The position numbers were made by a program, and so were the translations under genes. Under the pieces are notes generated by a model. It worked only from the letters and a program-made list of their open reading frames with translations, was not told where the DNA came from and made no database searches. A DNA stretch of 64,000 nt from Sipunculus nudus (Eukaryota > Annelida > Sipuncula > Golfingiida > Sipunculidae). The stretch's first letter is position 1, and the number at the start of each line of letters is the position of its first letter. The stretch covers positions 76,484,643-76,548,642 of the forward strand of contig CM049307.1 in the NCBI GenBank assembly GCA_026874595.1. Direction: 5' to 3'. Positions 20,700-64,000 of this stretch are shown here, piece after piece.

Positions 20700-21600
20700 A
20701 TCCTGAGCTGCATAGTCTTCAAAAGGGCATACCATTCAAGATCTTGGTCTTCATACTGAAGTTTAAGTTATGGGTTGTCTGTATTCTGGTTGTCAACCTT
20801 CATCACTTTTCCAGAGCACCAGTATGTATTGTCCTCTTGGTCAACTGTCTTCCCTACTAGTCGCTGAGATTCAAGTTGAAGTAATTCCAGTTCCCCTTTC
20901 CTTAGATCACTCATCAGCGGAAAGCTATACATCCTACCATGTTCACAACCGTACTGGATCTGATGGACATAACGACGGGACCGCCCAGCTGTAGTGGTCT
21001 CCATACTAACCACCCAACCTGCGAACCACTCTTCCTTGTGCCGAACTCTGTTCCCAGTCAGATCAGATGCAAACTGGATTTGTGGAATGGGGGGACTTCC
21101 TACCAGACTAGAGCTGTTTCCTGTTCTTCTTCCCACATAATAATCTGTCTTCTCCACTTGCAGAGCAGTATCATCAGCAAGAACAGACACTAAGCCATCA
21201 ACTGTCTCTTCTTGAACACACTGATGTTCCGTCTACGCAGCCTCATCATTCTCTAGATGTTGCTCCGCAGCTTGCTAACAGACAGGCAACATCTTACAGC
21301 AGACAGGGTGAGCCTAACGTCTGGGTTGAAACAGAAGCCGGCGGTACTTGTTCTGAACTTTACGGGCAAGGCACTGCTGAAGGTCGGAATCCAACTTGGC
21401 TAAGTGCTTTGGTGCGTGAACTGTAGTCCAGAGGCCACCAACATATGTAAGCTTCACAGAGAGATCCTCCTTAATAAAGCGGGTCCGGCGTTCATGATCT
21501 TCCTTCTCCTGCAATGGAACCTTCCGTTTGTGGGAAATGAACTTAGCATGCTCTGCTGCTCTAGCCAGGTTATCACGGGACAGGGTCTCAACACATTTCC
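20700..21600 (-). pseudogene. Multi-copy ORF family, C-terminal fragment (copy 1)
   Basis: Minus-strand C-terminal part of the same ORF family as 25,740-28,741. It reads HERRTRFIKEDLSVKLTYVG, GLWTT and the Lys-rich KVQNKYRRL region (21,514-21,314). After a frame change comes DLTGNRVRHKEEWFAGWVVS, HQIQYGCEHGRMYSFPL and SDLRKGELELLQLE (about 21,080-20,860). This 'K.VRH..E..WF.G.V......Y.IQYD....Y.FPL..DL..G.LE.L' tail looks like a small barrel (Tudor/chromo-like) fold, which is inference. The N-terminal and middle regions are absent, so it is a truncated copy. Function of the family unknown to me. It recurs in invertebrate genomes and behaves like a transposon-borne gene. Confidence 0.6.
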
Positions 21601-21649
21601 TATTCCTAAAAGGCTATGTAAGCTGTGTCAGTTTAGCTTTTTATAATAC

Positions 21650-25739: not shown

Positions 25740-28700
25740 GTGAGCTGTCTGCATCCTGGTAAAAATTCATCATTTTTCTAGGCAACCAGTATGTATTGCC
25801 CCCTTCATCTTCAGAGCTATGGTGAAGTCCTCCCAGGTGCACCAGGTGCTGAATTTCCAGTTGAAGTACTTCAAGCTCCCCTTTTCTGAGATGACTCATC
25901 AGTGGAAACTATACCTCCTCCCTTGATCACAATCGACAAGACCGCCCAGCTGTACTTGTCTCCAAACTAACCACCCAACCTGCAAACCACACTTCCTTGC
26001 CATCTTCTTCACAGAGTTGTCTAACTCTTTTCCCAAGCAGATCAGCCGCAGACTTGATCCGTGGAATAAGGGACTTCCTACCAGGCTTGACCCATTTCCT
26101 GTTCTTCTTTCCATACAATAATTTGTTCTTTTTTACATGCAGAGCATCAGCGTCAGCAAGAGTTTTCTCTAAACCATCCACGCAATCAACTGTCTCTTCT
26201 TGAACATACTGATGTTCCGTCTGTGCAGCCTCGATCACTATCTGTAGGTTGGTTCTCAGCCTGCTAACAGACATGCGACATCTTCCAGCAGACAGGTTTA
26301 GCACATCATCTGGGTTGGGACTCTGTAACACTTGCCAGCGGTTCTTGGTCTGAACTTCTAGGGCACGGCGCTGCTGAAGGTCGGAGTCCTCTTTGGCTTG
26401 GTGCTCCTCTGGTGCTTAGACTGTAGTCCAGAGACAACCAACATCTGTTATCATCACAGAATGATCCTCTATAATAACGCGGGTCCGGCGGTCATGAACT
26501 TCTGTCTCCTACAACCGAACCTTCCGTTTCTGTGAAGTGAACTTAGCATATTCTGTTCCTCTAGCTAGGTCATCATGGGGCTGGGTCTCAACATCTTTCC
26601 CCACGGTGGCTATTAAACACCTGTCGCTCAGTCTGTTACTTCCTGTTCAACCACATACCTACATGGCTATTTTCTATACATCAGCATTCCCTCAAAGTTC
26701 ACAGTGTCGAGAGATGGTCGAACAAGGAGGCTCTGGTCCAGGGACGCAAAATAATGGGCAATGCTGTCCTTCTTCACACTGATGGTCTTCCCAGAATTTC
26801 TTGGAAAAAACGGCATGCTCACCATCATCAAGATTTGCTGCCAAGTTGTTCCTACACCCAGCCATAAACTCGTCAGCATCAGCTCGAGTATCTGCCGGGT
26901 GATGACACCAGTCCGTGGATGGTCCCTTTTCAGTGCATCTACTACCTGGTCCTTCTTGACTCCAATGTCTGACATGGTGAGCAGGGGAGATGGATCGTCC
27001 ATCCACTTCTCTATGCATGAAACCAAGCGCTAGTACCTCGCATTCATTCAGCTAAAGTGACCTGGCTCCTCAATGGCCTTCCATAATGGCTCTGTGATCA
27101 CTTTGCTGAAAACTCAAAGGGCACTTGCTCGAACAATAAACGGCCCAACCTAAAAATGCTTGTGCTCATCAAAGAAAGCTCGCAGTATCCCGGAATATGA
27201 AGTTAAATCTATTCCCGATGAACTGCTCTAGAGGCAGGCGGCGAAGTCCCAGCTCTGTCTCCATAAAACACATGAACTGTCCAGTAATCCCTGACTTCTG
27301 ACATCCTCGCTCATGCACACTTTAACAGATGGTCCTGGTTATTCGTGTAGTCCCCGACTCTGCCTTCTCAGGAAGGGATGCAGATTCTACTTTCTGTCGG
27401 ACAAAAACCAAAGTATCCCATACCTTCAGCGTTGATTCTGCTACCATATCCAGATCATAAGGATATGAAGTCCACAGAAAAAGTTGTTCATGTTCAGGAC
27501 TGCCTTCTACTCTTGAGTAGTGAGATGTGAATATACACTTGTCACCTCCTGGAATATCTCGTCTCTGTACTCCTTCAGAAGACTGTTAAATTTCTTATTG
27601 AAAATATTGCGGTCACCCATTGTGTTCTTGATATGCATAACTATCTTATGAACATCCGGATTGTCCTCTGCTGTAGAATCTCCGAAGGTCGCCACCTCAT
27701 GCACAACAGTCTTCTAGGTCTGAAAATGGCTTCACTGCCTCCATCAAACATTTCTCTCATACAAATCGTCAGAGTTCTGCCATCTGGAAGTGAAATGTTA
27801 TACGCACCATGAAAATATTTTGTGGTACCATCACAATGCAGCGTAAGGTTGTATGTCTGCTCCATCACTTCACGTAGATGCATCAGGGCAATACCCCGAC
27901 ATTCCAAAATCATGCGACGGGCAAACGCCTCACATGGAAGTCTTTTACCTGAAATTGGTGAAAGTTTTAAATACACACTACACAGTTATGCGCAGACACA
28001 CCCATGGCTCTTGGTTACATGTAACAGGACTGGACGTTATCATCATACCTATTATGCATAAAAAAACATACCTTGTATCATCCAAAAGTTCTTTCAACTT
28101 GTTTTATTAGCCCAAAATGATAATTCTACAGGAAATCTATGTTCTTCTCAGCTCAGTCTCTTGATATTGTTCGTGGCTGCGGTCTTCACTAGACTTGCGT
28201 AACAACTTGCAAATCCTCATCTGTAAATTAAGCTGCTTTCTTCTTTCCTCTTCTACATGGTCCTGAAGACACCTCTTCCTCTCATTCAGAGTAGTAACCA
28301 ATTTGGCTTGTTCCTGGCACTGTCTTGTCAAGGTGAAGAAATGCTCCTGTAACATGACGCTTCTCTCTCGTCATTACATTGAACTGGGCAAACCTCCTGC
28401 AGTCATTGCATCTCTGATTCTGATTCACTGTAGCGCTAATTCATTCGAGTAATTCCAACCTGCAATGCACGGTTCTTCGAGGAAACGTCCTTGAAACTAG
28501 CCAAGCACATATCCCGATCAGCCTCAGCCTTGTGTAGTGCATCTGTCAGTCTGCTGATTTCAATCCTCTGCTGTCTGATGGTAGACTGCAGATTCTTCAA
28601 ATTCTTATCACTATCCTTGACCAGCTTTTCAAATTTGAAACTAAACAGAGTGGTCGCAAATGCTGTCATTTGAGCTCCACGATCCCGCTTTACACTCTTG

Positions 28701-39107: not shown

Positions 39108-39528
39108 GACCTTAATGCCCCACTTGGTTGACTTACTGTGAATGTAATCCTTAAAAGCAAGCCTACCCGTGAACCCTATCATATCTTTGTCAACACTCAG
39201 TTCTCAGAGAGTTCTCAGTTGAGTGATTAGAGGTCCAAGCTTGAGTAAAGGATACCTGCAATGGCAGAAACAGGCAAATGTAAATACTGATTAATTTTCA
39301 CAAAGCTTGTCTTGGTCATGACAGACGAAATCGAATGACATCTGAGGCAAAGGTCCAGGCTCCTGTAACACCACAGCTGTAACAGACACCTCACACCCAT
39401 AATGATGTTAATGGCAAAAAATGCCCTTACCTCATCCAGGGTCACTGGATGCCAAAAAGGGTCAGCCTTGCCGGGTGCAGTGATCACCAGCTCCGCGTAC
39501 CTGTTCGTATCTGTGCCATATGTTTAAA
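39108..39528 (-). pseudogene. piggyBac-type transposase fragment
   Basis: Minus-strand frame from about 39,525: YGTDTNRYAELVITAPGK, then WHPVTLDEVRAFFAINIIMG, RCHSISSVMTKTSFVKINQY and LHL (to about 39,255). After a short break at about 39,207-39,112 comes ELSVDKDMIGFTGRLAFKDY followed by IHSKSTKWGIKVWKL. NRYA..., 'T..E..AF.AI...MG', 'M.R..F..I..YLH' and 'SVDE.MI.F.GR..FK.Y...KP.KWGIK.W.L' are the first half of piggyBac transposases, including the first catalytic Asp (SVD). The rest is absent. Immediately after KVWKL lies GTAAGA, a consensus donor, so an intron could follow, but no next exon is found. Stops between the two parts make it a pseudogene here. Confidence 0.7.
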
Positions 39529-57770: not shown

Positions 57771-58597
57771 TGTTATGGAACCTAATATCAACAGATCACG
57801 TATGCGTGAAGAACATAAATTTTGTCATGGAGATAAAAAAATTAGATTCTGTAACACTAGGCAGCGTGACATGTCAAGGGGAATGAATAAAGAAGTCAGT
57901 AGTTTTTTTTTGTTAACAAGTAACTATAATTTATTAAAAAACAACCTTAACATTAAAATACACTAAATTAATACAATTACACAGTACAACAACAGTATAA
58001 CAGCAAATCAGTATAATCACACAGCATAATAAACGAAGTGCACAGTAGCTGGATACCACCACTGTCACAGCGACAAGTCCTTTAAAATATTTAAACTGGA
58101 TGAACAGTTCACACAAATCTCCTCAGAGAATAACAGTCCATTGTAATCACAAAATCAAGCTAATCCAAAGTGATATCCTGGCAGTGATCCGAAGGGCAAA
58201 CTGAAGACTATATAAGATCCGTCACGAATTTAGAAGAAAATCTTGTCACGGAACCTAATATCAACAGATCACGTATGTGTGATGGACATTAATTCTGTTA
58301 AGGAGATATAAAAAATCCGATTCTGCAACACCAGGCAGCGTGAAATGTCTAGGGGAACAAACAAAAGAGTCAGCGGTCCTTTGCAACAAATAACTATAAT
58401 TTATTCCTAAAACAACCCTAACACCTCAATATACCAAAGCAATACACTGACACAGTAAAGCAGCAAATCAATACAATCACACAGTAAAATACAAAATACA
58501 CAGCACCTGGATACCGCCACTGCCACAACGATAAGTCCTTTTAAATGTATAAGCCGGCGAACAGTTCACACGAATTCTCTCGGAGAATAACAGTCCA
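57771..58597 (+). repeat. Two tandem LTR-like units (offset 473 bp)
   Basis: TGTTATGGAACCTAATATCA at 57,771 and TGTCACGGAACCTAATATCA at 58,244 start two collinear units. Both carry AACAGATCACGTATG, GGCAGCGTGA, TAACTATAATTTATT, CTGGATACC.CCACTG and AACAGTTCACAC, to GAGAATAACAGTCCA (58,140 and 58,597). The TGT starts suggest LTR ends. The second unit is contiguous with the gypsy-element LTR. Confidence 0.75.
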
Positions 58598-58652
58598 ATG
58601 TAAAGCTCTTTAAACAATTCAGAAAGTAAACTTGAGACAGACAGCACTAAAT

Positions 58653-59043
58653 TGTAAAGTGTTAGTTATAGTAGAATAATCGGACAGGTTCCGCACGTCT
58701 GTGTCCGCTGGAATATTCCCTCACCTCTTTTTGGCTCTTAAACACAGCCCCCTATATATAACTTCTCGCCCCAAGCCGAGAATTTTCCACTTCTCGAACA
58801 GTCTAAAGAATCTAACACAGCACAAACGTTCAAAGAACATACCAGAACAACGAATGCCGTGTCTCAACATTTTAGGGTTCACATATGAGCTCGCCCCGGC
58901 TCGGCCAGACGAGAAAGCCCCAAGCTAGCATGACAACGAGAGTTCAACAAGTACGGATTAAACTGAGAGTGCAACACGCGGCCAGTCACCGGCGCTAGCA
59001 CTAGTTACGCCCGCGTCACACAATAAAAGAGACATCTGTAACA
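58653..59043 (-). repeat. 3' LTR of the gypsy-type retrotransposon
   Basis: Matches 63,735-64,000 in order: GTGTCCGCTGGAATATT, AAACACAGCCCC, AAGCCGAGAA, TTCTCGAACA, CCTAACAC-like, then the GGCTCG phrase. On the plus strand it runs from TGTAAAG (58,653) to CTGTAACA (59,043). On the element strand the start is TGTTACAG. An alternative left boundary at TGTCACGG (58,244) would make an 800-bp LTR; the right LTR does not contain that part. Confidence 0.65.
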
Positions 59044-59055
59044 CTCCCCCTCCTG
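59044..59055 (-). other. Polypurine tract
   Basis: On the element strand CAGGAGGGGGAG abuts the LTR start TGTTACAG, the expected position for the plus-strand primer. Confidence 0.65.
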
Positions 59056-59174: not shown

Positions 59175-59700
59175 TCATAAACATCTCGTTAGGCAATCAA
59201 CAAGTACATTGTCTTTCCCTTTAATGTTTGATTTCAAGGTTGTAATCTGTAAGAACAAACTCCATCTCAACAATCTTTGATTTTTACACTTCAACTTGTT
59301 CATGAACGTGAGGGGATTGTGATCACTGAAGACAATGATAGGCTTGACTGATAAAGTAACATAAGCTCTAAAATGTTGCAATGCAAAAAAGCAAAGCTAA
59401 ACATTATTTTTCAGTAGTGGAGTAGTTTTTCTGGTTTGCATTAAACTTTCTGGAGAAATAACAAATTGGGTGATCTATGCCATCATTGCCTTCTTGTAAC
59501 AACGCAGCACCAGCAGCAGTATCACTAGCACCTACAGCTAACTTAAAAGGTACAGATAAGTCTGGAGCTGCTAAAACTGGTGAACTTTGCAGAATTGCTT
59601 TCAAATTCTTAAATGCATTTTCACACTGAACATTCCATACAAAGTTTCGTTTCTTTTTTAACAAATTAGTCAAAGGTTCAGCTACAGCAGAAAAATTTGG
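59175..59700 (-). pseudogene. Gypsy-type RNase H domain (broken)
   Basis: Continues the RT frame: GMAGYYRKFCPNFSAVAEPL, AFKNLKAILQSSPVLAAPDL, then FKLAVGASDTAAGAALLQEG, CYFSRKFNANQKNYSTTEK. After a stop and frame change it continues HFRAYVTLSVKPIIVFSDHN then PLTFMNKLK and KGKDNVLVDCLTR. This is the RNase H connected to gypsy RT. The first catalytic Asp, normally AVDASD, is AVGASD here, so the active site is lost. SDHNPL retains its Asp. Likely last domain of pol; downstream only the polypurine tract and LTR follow. Confidence 0.85.
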
Positions 59701-59749
59701 ACAGAACTTCCTGTAGTATCCAGCCATACCAAGAAAACGCATTATTTGC

Positions 59750-60480
59750 TTTTTGTTTTCTGGTCTCGGAAATGCAGAAATAGCACTTATCTTTGCATCA
59801 ACAGGTTTTACCGGACTCTGCCCTACAGTACGACCCAAAAATGTTACCTGTGCATGACAAAATTCAGATTTAACTAAGTTGACGTGCTTCACTGAGTCTT
59901 TCGAAGAGGTCGCGAAGGATTTGCAGGTGTCGCTGTACATAATGAGGTCATCAATATATGCGTCGAAGCCTTGAATGTCCTTGACAACCATATGGATGAG
60001 GAGCTGAAACGTGGCTGGCGAGTTCTTCATGCCAAACGGCATAACTTTATACTGGTACAGTCCTTGCGACGTCACAAATGCTGATACTTCTTTGCTCTGT
60101 CAGCGGAACTTGCCAGAATCCTTTTAGCAAGTCATACCTGGAAACATATCTGGAGCTACCGACTCTATCAATACAATCATCGATTCCTCGGAATCGGGAA
60201 CGTGTCAGTTTTAGTGACAGAAATCAGTTTTCGATAATCTGTGCACATACGATAACTTCCATCAGGTTTTGGCACAAGAATACATGGTGAACTCCAGTTA
60301 CTGTTACTAGGTTCAATAAAATCATTTTCCAGCAAATACTGAATCTCATCCTGTAGATAATTTTACTTTTCTGGATTCAGTCTATAAGGATGCTGCCTGA
60401 TTGTGTTTGCCTCGCCAACATCGACGTCGTGGCACGATATGTTAGTTCGCGTTGGAATGTCACTAAACAAATATTCATAA
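59750..60480 (-). pseudogene. Gypsy-type reverse transcriptase (frameshifted)
   Basis: Element-strand order: SCHDVDVGEANTIRQHPYRL (about 60,430-60,370), a stop, YLQDEIQYLLENDFIEP, WSSPCILVPKPDGSYRMCTD (about 60,300-60,240), a frameshift near 60,190, SRYVSRYDLLKGFWQVPLT, then GLYQYKVMPFGMKNSPATFQ (about 60,065-60,005), AYIDDLIMYSD (catalytic YxDD, about 59,965) and VTFLGRTVGQSPVKPVDAKI. These are the successive RT fingers/palm blocks of Ty3/gypsy elements, all present in order. At least two frame breaks make it inactive. It lies downstream of integrase on the coding strand. Confidence 0.9.
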
Positions 60481-61755
60481 TTCAGCAGCAGGTTCTTGAG
60501 GTCTTGTTGTTGTTGTGTGGTAAGGTGTGCAAGTTTGGCATCCAGGTTTTATAAGCACGTCTGAGTTTTTTAATGGTACTGTACCACACTGAATGTCTAC
60601 ATCACCCTTACAATCAGTGTCTATTTTAACTGGGTCAGGGTAAGTGTTTACACAATTTACAGCAATAACATTATGTACAGCATGTGATGTGCTATTTCTG
60701 TCATAATATGGTTTCAACATGTTAACTTGGCACAGTTGTTTCTTCTTACGCCTATCTGGTGCAAACAGTATGTAATTTAAATCACTGACTTTCTTGTCAA
60801 CAATGTAAGGACCAAAATGCCTAGCTTGCAGAGGTCTGCCAGGGATGGGAAGTAAGGCAAGGACCTTTTCACCAGGCTGAAACGTCCTATTTACAGTGTG
60901 TTTGTCATACTTTGTTTTCATTTTACTTTGTGCAGATTTTAGATTTGACTTTGCAATCTCACAAGCATTGTGCAGTTTAGTGCGAAAGTCTTAGACATAC
61001 TGCAGTGAACTAAGAGAATCAGGATTTCCACACAAGAGCTTTTCTTTAAGCAGTTTCAATGGAAGTTCAGTTCGCGGTCTATGTCCGAAAACTAGTTCAA
61101 AGGGACTGAAACCAAAGGACTCTTGAAAGGATTATCTGACAGCAAACAGCAATAGGTGGATTCCTTTATCCTAGTATATCCGTGTGTCATAGCAATAGGT
61201 CCTAATCATGTTTTTTTAATGTCTGGTGAAAACGCTCGAGGGCGACCTGACTTTCAGGGTGGTATGGCGAAGAGCTGTACTGTTTTATACCTAGCTCAAG
61301 CATAACTTGCTGGACCAAGCCAGACATAACATTAGACCCTTGGTCAAACTGGACGGATTTTGGTAATCCAAAAGTTGTAAAAACCTTGGTTAGAGCTTTG
61401 ACAACACTTTTGGCATTAATTTTGCGCAATGGTATTGCCTCAGGGAACCTGGTAGATGCGCACATAAGTATCAGCAAGTATTGGGCAATGGTCCAACACA
61501 ATCAACAATAATCCTACTAAATGGTTCTTCGAAAGCAGGAACAGGCCTAAGTGGGGCCTTAGGAGGATTCTGATTGGGCTTACCTACCATCTGGCATGTG
61601 TGGCTTGATTTAATATATTGTACAACATCCTTCCTGAGGTTAGGCCAATAGAAGTGTGTACTAACTTCTGATAAGTTTTTATTTATCACTAAATGGCCAG
61701 ACAAAGGAGCCTCATGTGCCATGCTTTGAATTTTATTGCGAAAGCTTTTGGGCAC
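60480..61755 (-). pseudogene. Gypsy-type integrase, located upstream of RT
   Basis: On the element strand: HEAPLSGHLVINKNLSEVST, FYWPNLRKDVVQYIK and SHTCQMVGKP are the HHCC zinc region (the first Cys appears as Ser: SSHTC). Then FSRIIVDCVGPLP (first catalytic Asp), after a frameshift CASTRFPEAIPLRKI, VQFDQGSNVMSGLVQQ (second Asp), SSPYHPESQVALERFHQTLK (catalytic Glu, about 61,215), FSPFELVFGHRPRTELPLKL, KYDKHTVNRTFQPGEKVLAL and RHFGPYIVDKKVSDLNYI, the GPY/F module of gypsy integrases. The DDE residues are retained but the frame is broken. The same frame region runs on toward the RT at 60,430, so integrase-before-RT is continuous, not a rearranged fragment. Confidence 0.9.
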
Positions 61756-61841
61756 TAACTGAACAGCAGCAACTGAATTCCTTTAAAGGGTAAAGTAGTT
61801 CTTATGCCCAGCGTAATATTCCCAGAAATCAAATCTGACTT

Positions 61842-62132
61842 TTAATGGATACTGTGAAGCGGAACTGAAGTGTGCTTGTCTGAAAACACACCTTTGACAA
61901 GTGCATAGGCACCAGTAAAGGACCTATTAGAAAATAGCAAATTTTTTGCTAACATGAGAGTCTGGCCTGAACCAGTGTTCCTCAAAATTCTAATAGGGGT
62001 AGAATCTGAAAAATCACTTGAAAGTGATAAAAAACCATCATATATGAATGGCTCAAATAACTCCATTTCAGAGTCAGGAGAGGAATCTACTACCTCATCA
62101 AACAAAGAACTGACACTGAAAGTGTCAGTCAT
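61842..62132 (-). pseudogene. Retropepsin-type protease, active-site Asp lost
   Basis: The frame contains TPIRILRNTGSGQTLMLAKN followed by LLF, the retropepsin flap-side block where the family has D-T/S-G. Here the catalytic Asp is Asn (NTGS), so it would be inactive. It is preceded by an acidic, Ser/Asp-rich stretch (VSSLFDEVVDSSPDSEMELF) that looks like a linker after the nucleocapsid, and followed by the integrase. Confidence 0.7.
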
Positions 62133-62139
62133 ATCAGAG

Positions 62140-63690
62140 TCATTTAAAGAATCTACATCCTTTTTTTATCATCAAACCCCTCATGGGAGTCAACAGAGGA
62201 ATTTTGCTCAGCAGAAACAAACTTATGTTTGTCATAAGAGGACCTGGCCACATTTGAAATACTCTCGCAAGAGTCATAAAAGGACTTAGCCTTACTTAGG
62301 GAATACTCCTCGCAGGAGTCTTAAAAGGACCTGCTCTTATTAAATTCCTCGCAGGAATCAACTGAGGTCTTTACCCCGCAAGCTAGGGATTCTTCTTTGG
62401 ATTCAGACGGCACTTGGGCCTCCGTAGCATCAAACTCTTTATTCGAGTCAAAAAAGGAGTTATACCCCTTATTTACATGAAAAGAGCCTGGCTTTGTACT
62501 ATGCTATGCATAGATTTTGAAACAAAACCAGAAGGTTTGCTATTTGGTTTATTCTCAAGTTTCCAGCAGTCAGATATAAGACGACCTTCCTTCTTGCAGT
62601 TATTAAAGATTTTATTTGAAAATGACTGGCCTTGGTTAGACACAGTGGACGTGGACTGAAATGTTGCAATGGACATTGCTCAACTATCAGGACTATTAGT
62701 ACTGGGTGATTGCGCTTTAAACTTCTTCTGACCATACTTATTTACATTCTTGTTTGTGAATGACTGGTTTGATTTGCTATTTTTGCATTTTGTGTGTTAA
62801 TGAATAATCATCAGCTAATTGAGCAGCAATGTCAAGTGTTTCAGGACTTTTCTCATCAGAAAAGTTTTAACATCTGCGTTAATGCAGCGCTTAAATTCTT
62901 CAAGCAAAATCAACTGGCGCAATTTGTCATAATCTTTCATTACATTTTTAAAACTACACCAGCGATCAAACAACTGCTCTTTTGTCCAAGCAAATTCGAC
63001 GTAGGTCTGTTTGCCTCCTGAACTAACTCATAACCTTTTAGGATTATCCGTTTTATCAGGTCATAGTCAGCAGCAGCTTCTACTGAAAGCTCTGTATAAA
63101 TTTCTCTGGCCTTGCCCGTCAATACACTTTGTAACAGCATAGTCCAATTTTCCTTAGGCCATTTTAAATTTTCACCTGTAAGAAATGTTTATCAACCTCT
63201 TTTAATTGAAAAGGTGGGACAAGTCTAATGTGCCTAGTAACATCAAAACTGTGAGTTGGGGCAGCACTTAGACTATGTTCTAGTTTAAGTCTTTCTAACT
63301 CCAGTCGTTTTAACTCAATTTTTTTTCTGTTTCAAGTCTTTCTCTTTCTAACCTTTCATGTTCTTCCCTCCTCTCTCTTGGTTTGTCTAATTCCCTCTTT
63401 TCTCATTGTTTTTCAATTCCAACTGTTTTAATGATAGCTCATGTTGCATTTCTATTTTAATTCTAATTGCATAGGAAGGCTGTCATATTTTGATGTTTCA
63501 ACTGCACTCTTTTCAGTTAAACCTTTGCTGACTAGATCTTGTATGATTTTAGCAATGATATCAGGCTTTCTCAAAGCTTTTTTTTCACACCTAGCACTAA
63601 GTGTTGTCCCAAATGAAACAACTGTTCCTTTGTCAACTGTTCAAGTTGAACAGGGTCGGGATCGTTAACAAATGTCTCCAACACGGCGCC
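62140..63690 (-). pseudogene. Gag of the gypsy-type element (broken)
   Basis: Starts near the putative primer-binding site: LETFVNDPDPVQLEQLTKEQ, LFHLGQHLVLGVKKKALRKP (63,680-63,560), a Glu/Leu/Arg-rich helical region (63,450-63,300), HSFDVTRHIRLVPPFQLKEV (about 63,250), LLQSVLTGKAREIYTELSVE then DYDLIKRIILKGYELVQEAN (63,135-63,030, capsid). A degenerate zinc knuckle follows: CKKEGRLISDCWKLENK (about 62,600-62,560), in which the first Cys and the His of CCHC are replaced. 62,470-62,240 encodes an acidic repeat visible as CTCGCAGGAGTC-type phrases. Numerous frame breaks. No initiator Met is visible at the expected place. Confidence 0.75.
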
Positions 63691-63734: not shown

Positions 63735-64000
63735 TGTAACAATCTATAATTGCCGCACTTATCGGAAAAGGTTCACAACTGACTTACACGCTTCTGTGTC
63801 CGCTGGAATATTTCTCTCCTCTCCCCGGACTCTAAAACACAGCCCCTTATTCATAACTTTCACCTCATGCCGAGAACCCTTTCTCGAACAATCCAAAGAA
63901 CCTAACACGATACACAGTACACACGCGTTACAGGAAACATCTAAACAACATCGCTGTGTTTCTACATATCAGGGTTTACACGTGGGCTTGCCCGGCTCGG
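63735..64000 (-). repeat. 5' LTR of the gypsy-type retrotransposon (cut by window end)
   Basis: Aligns with 58,653-58,918 (see that entry) and would be expected to run about 125 bp past the window. The 40 bp just inside it (63,701-63,741, ending CACCTGTAACA) also match the outer 40 bp of the left LTR (59,003-59,043, ending CATCTGTAACA), which points to a rearranged or tandem LTR here. Confidence 0.65.

What the first reader, a model, noticed from the sequence alone, without database searches (positions are those of the whole stretch)
59175..63690. Ty3/gypsy-type element with integrase upstream of reverse transcriptase
Seen directly: on the minus strand the order is gag (63.7-62.1 kb), protease (62.1-61.8), integrase HHCC-DDE-GPY/F (61.75-60.5), then RT with YIDD (60.4-59.8), then RNase H (59.7-59.2), polypurine tract and LTR. 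Canonical Ty3/gypsy has RT-RNase H before integrase; Ty1/copia has integrase first. Gypsy-like sequence with copia-like order is the hallmark of the Gmr1-like group first described from deuterostomes. A copy in what looks like a mollusc would bear on its distribution. Family membership is inference from motif order.
Basis: partly seen in the sequence, partly recalled or inferred. Interest (0 to 1): 0.75.

Follow-up and report, generated by a model that had tools for sequence, protein, structure and literature searches.

The report
Integrase-first Gmr1-type Ty3/gypsy retrotransposon, degraded copy
This is a decayed copy of an old, abundant jumping gene whose integrase lies before, not after, its reverse transcriptase; such elements are known, but its shell protein carries the SCAN domain that vertebrates later recruited into gene regulators.

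Summary
On the minus strand the order is LTR, gag, protease, integrase (H2C2, DD35E core, GPY C-terminus), RT (YIDD), RNase H, polypurine tract, LTR. It is no local inversion: in 20 of 20 sibling copies fetched from other contigs, integrase lies upstream of RT, and one sibling has integrase C-terminus, RT and RNase H in a single open frame. Both enzymes match Ty3 best, in swapped order. Among the best hits in the same genome, 23 of 23 RT/H2C2 pairs show the canonical order. Two sibling gag frames carry a SCAN domain above Pfam's cut-off; SCAN derives from Gmr1-like gag (PMC3424704). So this is most likely a Gmr1-like element. 'Deuterostome hallmark' is dated: relatives are reported from crustaceans (PMC3587641) and an annelid (PMC8220671). 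A mollusc survey lists no Gmr1 clade (PMC6238403). The host's phylum stayed open; neither mollusc nor deuterostome is shown or excluded. No Gmr1 reference was available for a tree. Verdict: a real new member of a known kind; the interest is the many SCAN-capsid gag hits in this genome.

The parts
63793..64000 (-). 5' LTR, partial and rearranged; it continues to 64136 outside the window
   Evidence: LTR start motif at 64136 identical over 23 bases to that of the 3' LTR; self-alignment; only part of the sibling LTR matches
63164..63331 (-). gag N-terminal charged region
   Evidence: open piece that by eye resembles the N-terminal part of sibling gag frames
62815..63188 (-). gag capsid region with SCAN-like domain
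   Evidence: window piece 63027-62815: SCAN E=0.0022, under the cut-off; sibling frames L022 and L017: 42.5 and 48.8 bits against a cut-off of 27
61842..62165 (-). protease region, active-site motif degraded
   Evidence: motif at 61979; no Pfam hit for this piece; sibling L139 shows gag, a zinc-knuckle-like stretch and a DTG motif in one frame (by eye)
61471..61782 (-). integrase zinc-binding domain (H2C2) and first catalytic Asp
   Evidence: PF17921 2.6e-17
61202..61501 (-). integrase core (rve), D-35-E spacing
   Evidence: PF00665 2.7e-10; spacing 35
60475..60990 (-). integrase C-terminal domain with GPY motif
   Evidence: PF22938 2.9e-7; GPY
59637..60362 (-). reverse transcriptase, YIDD at 59958
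   Evidence: RVT_1 6.9e-12 on 60099-59404; YIDD; the N-terminal piece 60362-60177 gave no Pfam hit but aligns to the sibling RT frame
59175..59636 (-). RNase H (connection plus RNase H)
   Evidence: RT_RNaseH_2 2.5e-23 and RT_RNaseH 3.8e-9
59044..59053 (-). polypurine tract GGAGGGGGAG
   Evidence: directly upstream of the LTR start at 59043
58244..59043 (-). 3' LTR, 800 bp, TGTTACAG...CCGTGACA
   Evidence: start and end motifs; alignment to the sibling LTR
57771..58083 (-). second, partial LTR tail next to the 3' LTR
   Evidence: 83.8% to sibling LTR positions 458-762

Best explanation
A degraded copy of a Gmr1-like Ty3/gypsy LTR retrotransposon family. Family members have LTRs of about 760 bp, a primer-site-like stretch just inside the 5' LTR, and coding order gag (SCAN-type capsid, zinc-knuckle-like stretch), protease, integrase, RT, RNase H, then a polypurine tract and LTR, most simply as one gag-pol frame. 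Inferred cycle: RNA transcribed from the LTR is translated into one Gag-Pol polyprotein. The SCAN-type capsid forms the particle, protease cuts the polyprotein, RT/RNase H copies the RNA from a tRNA primer, and integrase inserts the DNA. The swapped order changes where integrase sits in the precursor, not the chemistry. Shown: anatomy, order, repetitiveness, decay. Inferred: single frame end to end, life cycle. This copy is broken.
For: Domain order in the window. Integrase upstream of RT in 20 of 20 fetched siblings; RNase H downstream in 18 of 20 (no hit in L015, L024); gag pieces upstream in 16 of 20. One 582-aa open frame, L019, with integrase C-terminus, RT and most of RT_RNaseH_2. Best PDB match of both enzymes is Ty3 pol: RT side to chain 583-928 (2.8e-65), integrase side to chain 1087-1447 (3.1e-48), i.e. 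swapped. SCAN in two of two sibling gag frames given to Pfam, 42.5 and 48.8 bits, cut-off 27; 150 of 150 scored genome hits over cut-off, of 2198 first-look candidates. 12 of 13 SCAN/H2C2 pairs have H2C2 1.58-1.74 kb after SCAN, too close for RT in between; the 13th is with a neighbouring canonical element. Only about 130 bases lie between the RNase H frame and the 3' LTR, so no room for env there; fish Gmr elements likewise have one Gag-Pol and no env (PMC11117352, passages).
Against: No Gmr1 reference could be placed in a tree with it. Gag searches against PDB found nothing at E below 0.1 and no SCAN structure; the best were nucleocapsid knuckles, and the window piece gave only chance hits. 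The window's own SCAN piece is below Pfam's cut-off. No target-site duplication was seen for this copy or for L019. No single copy was shown open from gag to RNase H. The 20 siblings are the best-scoring ones, so not a random sample.
Confidence: 0.88

Rival explanations
1. The order arose independently: a different Ty3/gypsy lineage moved integrase upstream, and the resemblance to Gmr1 is convergence.
For: No RT/IN tree with Gmr1 could be made here. A mollusc survey found 16 new Gypsy clades and did not list Gmr1 among those recovered (PMC6238403, section 6).
Against: The gag is SCAN-type, the marker of Gmr1-like gag (PMC3424704, passage; in over 50% of frog Gmr elements only, PMC4131045, passage).
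Confidence: 0.09
2. Local inversion, nested insertion or recombination at this locus created the apparent order.
For: The LTRs of this copy are rearranged.
Against: 20 of 20 siblings on other contigs share the order; an open frame crosses the IN-RT junction (L019); all domains lie on one strand.
Confidence: 0.01
3. A Ty1/copia element mistaken for gypsy.
For: The domain order is copia-like.
Against: Both enzymes match Ty3 best; the integrase has H2C2 and a GPY-type C-terminus.
Confidence: 0.01

Closest known systems
Gmr1-like clade of Ty3/gypsy (Atlantic cod Gmr1; fish Gmr1-4; frog Gmr)
   Same: Integrase upstream of RT, Ty3-type enzymes, SCAN-type gag (reported in frog Gmr), no env downstream of RNase H
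   Different: LTR about 760 bp against 337-518 bp in the fish table; sequence identity to Gmr1 not measured; host not identified
Lamellibrachia LGF3 (annelid) and GyRex4/GyRex5 and other crustacean elements
   Same: Reported as Gmr1 relatives in protostomes
Canonical Ty3/gypsy elements of the same genome
   Same: Same enzyme families
   Different: H2C2 start lies 0.56-0.98 kb downstream of the RT-RNase H hit in 23 of 23 pairs found
Vertebrate SCAN zinc-finger proteins
   Same: Share the SCAN domain, derived from Gmr1-like gag according to PMC3424704 (passage)
   Different: Host genes against a retrotransposon capsid

Membership tests
Ty3/gypsy superfamily | RT and integrase closest to Ty3 type | tested here: met
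   7q5b/4ol8 best for RT and 7q5b best for IN, among solved structures only
Gmr1-like clade | Integrase upstream of RT as a family trait | tested here: met
   20 of 20 siblings; L019 582-aa frame
Gmr1-like clade | SCAN-related capsid in gag | tested here: met
   L022 5.7e-11, L017 6e-13, above cut-off; window piece alone 0.0022, below cut-off
Gmr1-like clade | Single gag-pol frame, no env | tested here: inconclusive
   Pieces from different copies: L139 663-aa frame from gag through protease, L018 554-aa frame through integrase into the start of RT, L019 frame IN-RT-RH. No copy was shown open end to end; no env search was run, but only about 130 bases separate RNase H from the LTR
Gmr1-like clade | RT and IN group with Gmr1 in phylogeny | not testable with these tools
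   No Gmr1 sequence reachable; one viral-contig scan found nothing
LTR retrotransposon | LTR pair, PBS, PPT | tested here: met
   LTR pairs in 14 of 20 siblings within the fetched stretch; primer-site-like stretch at 8 of 10 5' LTR ends found; PPT
LTR retrotransposon | Target-site duplication at this copy | tested here: not met
   Flanks differ; LTRs rearranged, so loss by later change is likely
Ty1/copia | Copia-type RT and integrase | tested here: not met

The most novel reading that the evidence does not exclude
A Gmr1-like lineage with a true SCAN-type capsid is abundant in a protostome (possibly molluscan) genome. The SCAN domain, described as vertebrate-specific among host genes, would then predate the protostome-deuterostome split as a retroelement capsid domain, or have moved between phyla with the element; and molluscs could join the known hosts of the clade.
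Probability: 0.42. Interest if true: 0.5.

Novelty: new member of a known kind. Interest (0 to 1): 0.38.

Why it matters
The Gmr1 clade is the exception to the domain-order rule that separates Ty3/gypsy from Ty1/copia, and the donor of the SCAN domain of vertebrate transcription factors. A large family with both features, in the same genome as canonical gypsy elements, gives a natural comparison for when the order changed and where SCAN came from. Surveys that rest on RT trees alone may overlook it.

Tried and rejected
Rejected: local inversion, Ty1/copia identity. Host identification was tried with Egg_lysin and molluscan haemocyanin, both negative with no control ringing; COX1 (bacterial-type hits plus one short piece on C5 that reads as an animal mitochondrial insert); tektins; a myosin exon; and a globin exon. 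None fixed the phylum. A tektin-4-like exon matched the 8snb chain best (163.9 bits against 142.4 for the next; sea urchin by recall; I know of no mollusc tektin there), and a tektin-3-like frame matched vertebrate tektin-3 best. An annelid haemoglobin-linker search did not complete. Relatives in viral contigs: none in one scan. SCAN structures in PDB: none reached. LTR dating of this copy (K2P 0.200 over 227 sites) is not meaningful because its LTRs are rearranged.
Full report
Observation. Pfam on stop-free pieces of the minus strand puts H2C2 in 61782-61471, the integrase core in 61501-61202, the integrase C-terminal domain in 60990-60475, RT in 60099-59404 and RNase H down to 59175. The E-values, 2.5e-23 to 2.9e-7, rule out chance. 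D-35-E spacing, GPY and YIDD are present, and the protease motif is degraded. The polypurine tract abuts the 3' LTR start at 59043. The 3' LTR ends at 58244 and is followed by a second partial LTR tail to 57771. The 5' LTR begins at 64136 and is rearranged.

Is the order real? The genome (1.43 Gb, 153 contigs) gave 40 scored matches to the integrase region, the window copy itself and 39 others at 90-93% identity, out of 1885 first-look candidates. I fetched the 20 best of the 39, 7 kb each, from ten other contigs. In 20 of 20 the integrase pieces lie upstream of RT on the same strand. The RNase H piece was found downstream in 18 of 20 (no hit in L015, L024), and gag pieces upstream in 16 of 20 (none in L010, L015, L019, L023). 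L019 has a 582-aa open frame with integrase C-terminus (124-158), RT (302-460) and RT_RNaseH_2 (508-578). L018 has a 554-aa frame with H2C2, core and integrase C-terminus, the last just under its cut-off there. Against PDB, the L019 RT part matches Ty3 Gag-Pol at chain 583-928; the L018 integrase matches it at chain 1087-1447, and the end of the same frame matches the start of Ty3 RT. So the parts are Ty3-like and their order is swapped.

Control in the same genome. The 150 best RT_RNaseH_2 hits (of 6977 candidates) and 150 best H2C2 hits (of 6033) gave 23 pairs within 5 kb on one strand; in 23 of 23 H2C2 lies downstream of RT, the canonical order. Repeated distances and frame lengths show that many are copies of a few families, so they are not 23 independent cases. 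The 150 SCAN hits and the H2C2 hits gave 13 pairs: 12 with H2C2 1.58-1.74 kb after SCAN, and one, at -4.6 kb, where the H2C2 pairs with the RT of a neighbouring canonical element. One SCAN hit pairs with an RT hit 3.3 kb downstream. SCAN gag and integrase-first order therefore go together in these pairs. No SCAN-H2C2-RT triple of this type came from the tables; the fetched copies supply it.

Gag. The window's capsid piece hits SCAN weakly (0.0022, below cut-off). Two sibling frames, L022 and L017, hit it over model positions 1-88 of 90 at 42.5 and 48.8 bits (cut-off 27), followed by a zinc-knuckle match that is below its cut-off. In the genome, 150 of 150 scored candidates, of 2198, exceed the cut-off; most were not fetched, so that they are all gag of this family is inference. 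[quoted passage not shown] PMC4131045 (passages) found SCAN in over half of frog Gmr elements and only there. PMC10546077 (passage) lists PF02023 as enriched in Crassostrea gigas; that passage does not link it to elements. Against my reading: phmmer and profile searches of gag reached no solved SCAN structure and nothing at E below 0.1 (for the window piece).

Other anatomy. The sibling LTR is about 762 bp (L019), beginning TGTTACAG and ending CCGTAACA. Among 14 loci scanned for that end, 10 five-prime LTR ends were found; in 8 of 10 it is followed by six bases and then TGGGGGCTC, which I recall as the start of a proline-tRNA primer-binding site; L025 has a variant and L026 lacks it. The tRNA match was not tested. 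The internal region is 5.24 and 5.32 kb in L022 and L017 and 4.57 kb in L019. A 663-aa frame in L139 runs from gag through the protease motif. Fish Gmr elements are 6.1-6.5 kb with LTRs of 337-518 bp, a Gag-Pol of 1506-1634 aa and no env (PMC11117352, passages).

Age. LTR pairs were found in 14 of 20 siblings within the fetched stretches, K2P 0.021-0.117, several on short partial LTRs. No rate is assumed. The window copy is broken and rearranged and cannot be dated this way.

Host. Animal genes are present (tektins, muscle myosin). The phylum is open. Species of PDB chains are recalled, not shown by the calls. The myosin exon scores 194 bits to squid, 193 to a vertebrate cardiac chain, 193 to scallop and 177 to insect. 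The tektin-4-like exon scores 164 to sea urchin and 142 to the best vertebrate chain. The globin exon is closest to cytoglobin (4e-10) and then an annelid globin (1.4e-9). Several partial hits to one myosin region in one gene (C2:44.849-44.852 Mb) suggest alternative exons, which I recall as typical of protostome muscle myosin; this is a lead only. No haemocyanin domain was found, but no control genome rang.

Literature. The clade was named from deuterostomes (Goodwin and Poulter 2002, seen only as a reference). PMC3587641 (passages) called its crustacean elements the first Gmr1-like in protostomes. PMC8220671 (passages) places annelid family LGF3 in Gmr1. PMC6238403 (passages and section 6) lists 21 Gypsy clades in molluscs without Gmr1. 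PMC8556966 (passages) counts Gmr1 among clades present in several phyla and says it was not found in its own annelids. The search for Gmr1 with mollusc words gave 27 papers, 26 listed; by title, and by passages in the five I opened (PMC6238403, PMC8556966, PMC8220671, PMC3587641, PMC2774666), none reports Gmr1 from a mollusc. The search for Gmr1-like gave 10 papers, of which I read passages of three; none is on molluscs by title. Most subscription papers are not in that library. PMC10294476 on bivalves has no occurrence of Gmr1.

Verdict. A genuine integrase-first Ty3/gypsy element, most likely Gmr1-like. It is a new member of a known kind, with added interest from many SCAN-capsid hits in a genome whose phylum is still open.

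Noticed in passing
own genome contigs C60, C61, C62, C66, C72, C74, C75, C89: Nine near-equal hits to terminal oxidase COX1 in long open frames lie on contigs of bacterial type (C61, C62 and C89 are 2.0-3.3 Mb, C60 57 kb; the others' lengths were not seen). The one compared with GTDB (C60) is at most 58% identical to the loci kept, as if the animal carries strains of a bacterium without a close sequenced relative (near records may be left out of that search).
   Followed up: partly
G000:C123, 112 kb (L034, L035): A contig with a further, lower-scoring COX1 open frame of 489 aa; stretches fetched but not analysed.
   Followed up: no
own genome: Many RT_RNaseH_2 hits lie in long open frames with repeated lengths (1304, 1478 aa), so other gypsy families look younger than this one; inference from frame length only.
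   Followed up: no
window 57771-58603: The tail of the LTR is present twice (about 76% alike), a partial second LTR end beside the 3' LTR.
   Followed up: partly
window 20771-21613 and 25930-26415: Two related minus-strand coding fragments (shared VQEETVD and WFAGWVVS stretches) that look like a repeated element; seen by eye.
   Followed up: no
window 39230-39523: An open piece that by eye resembles a PiggyBac-type transposase fragment; recalled, not tested.
   Followed up: no
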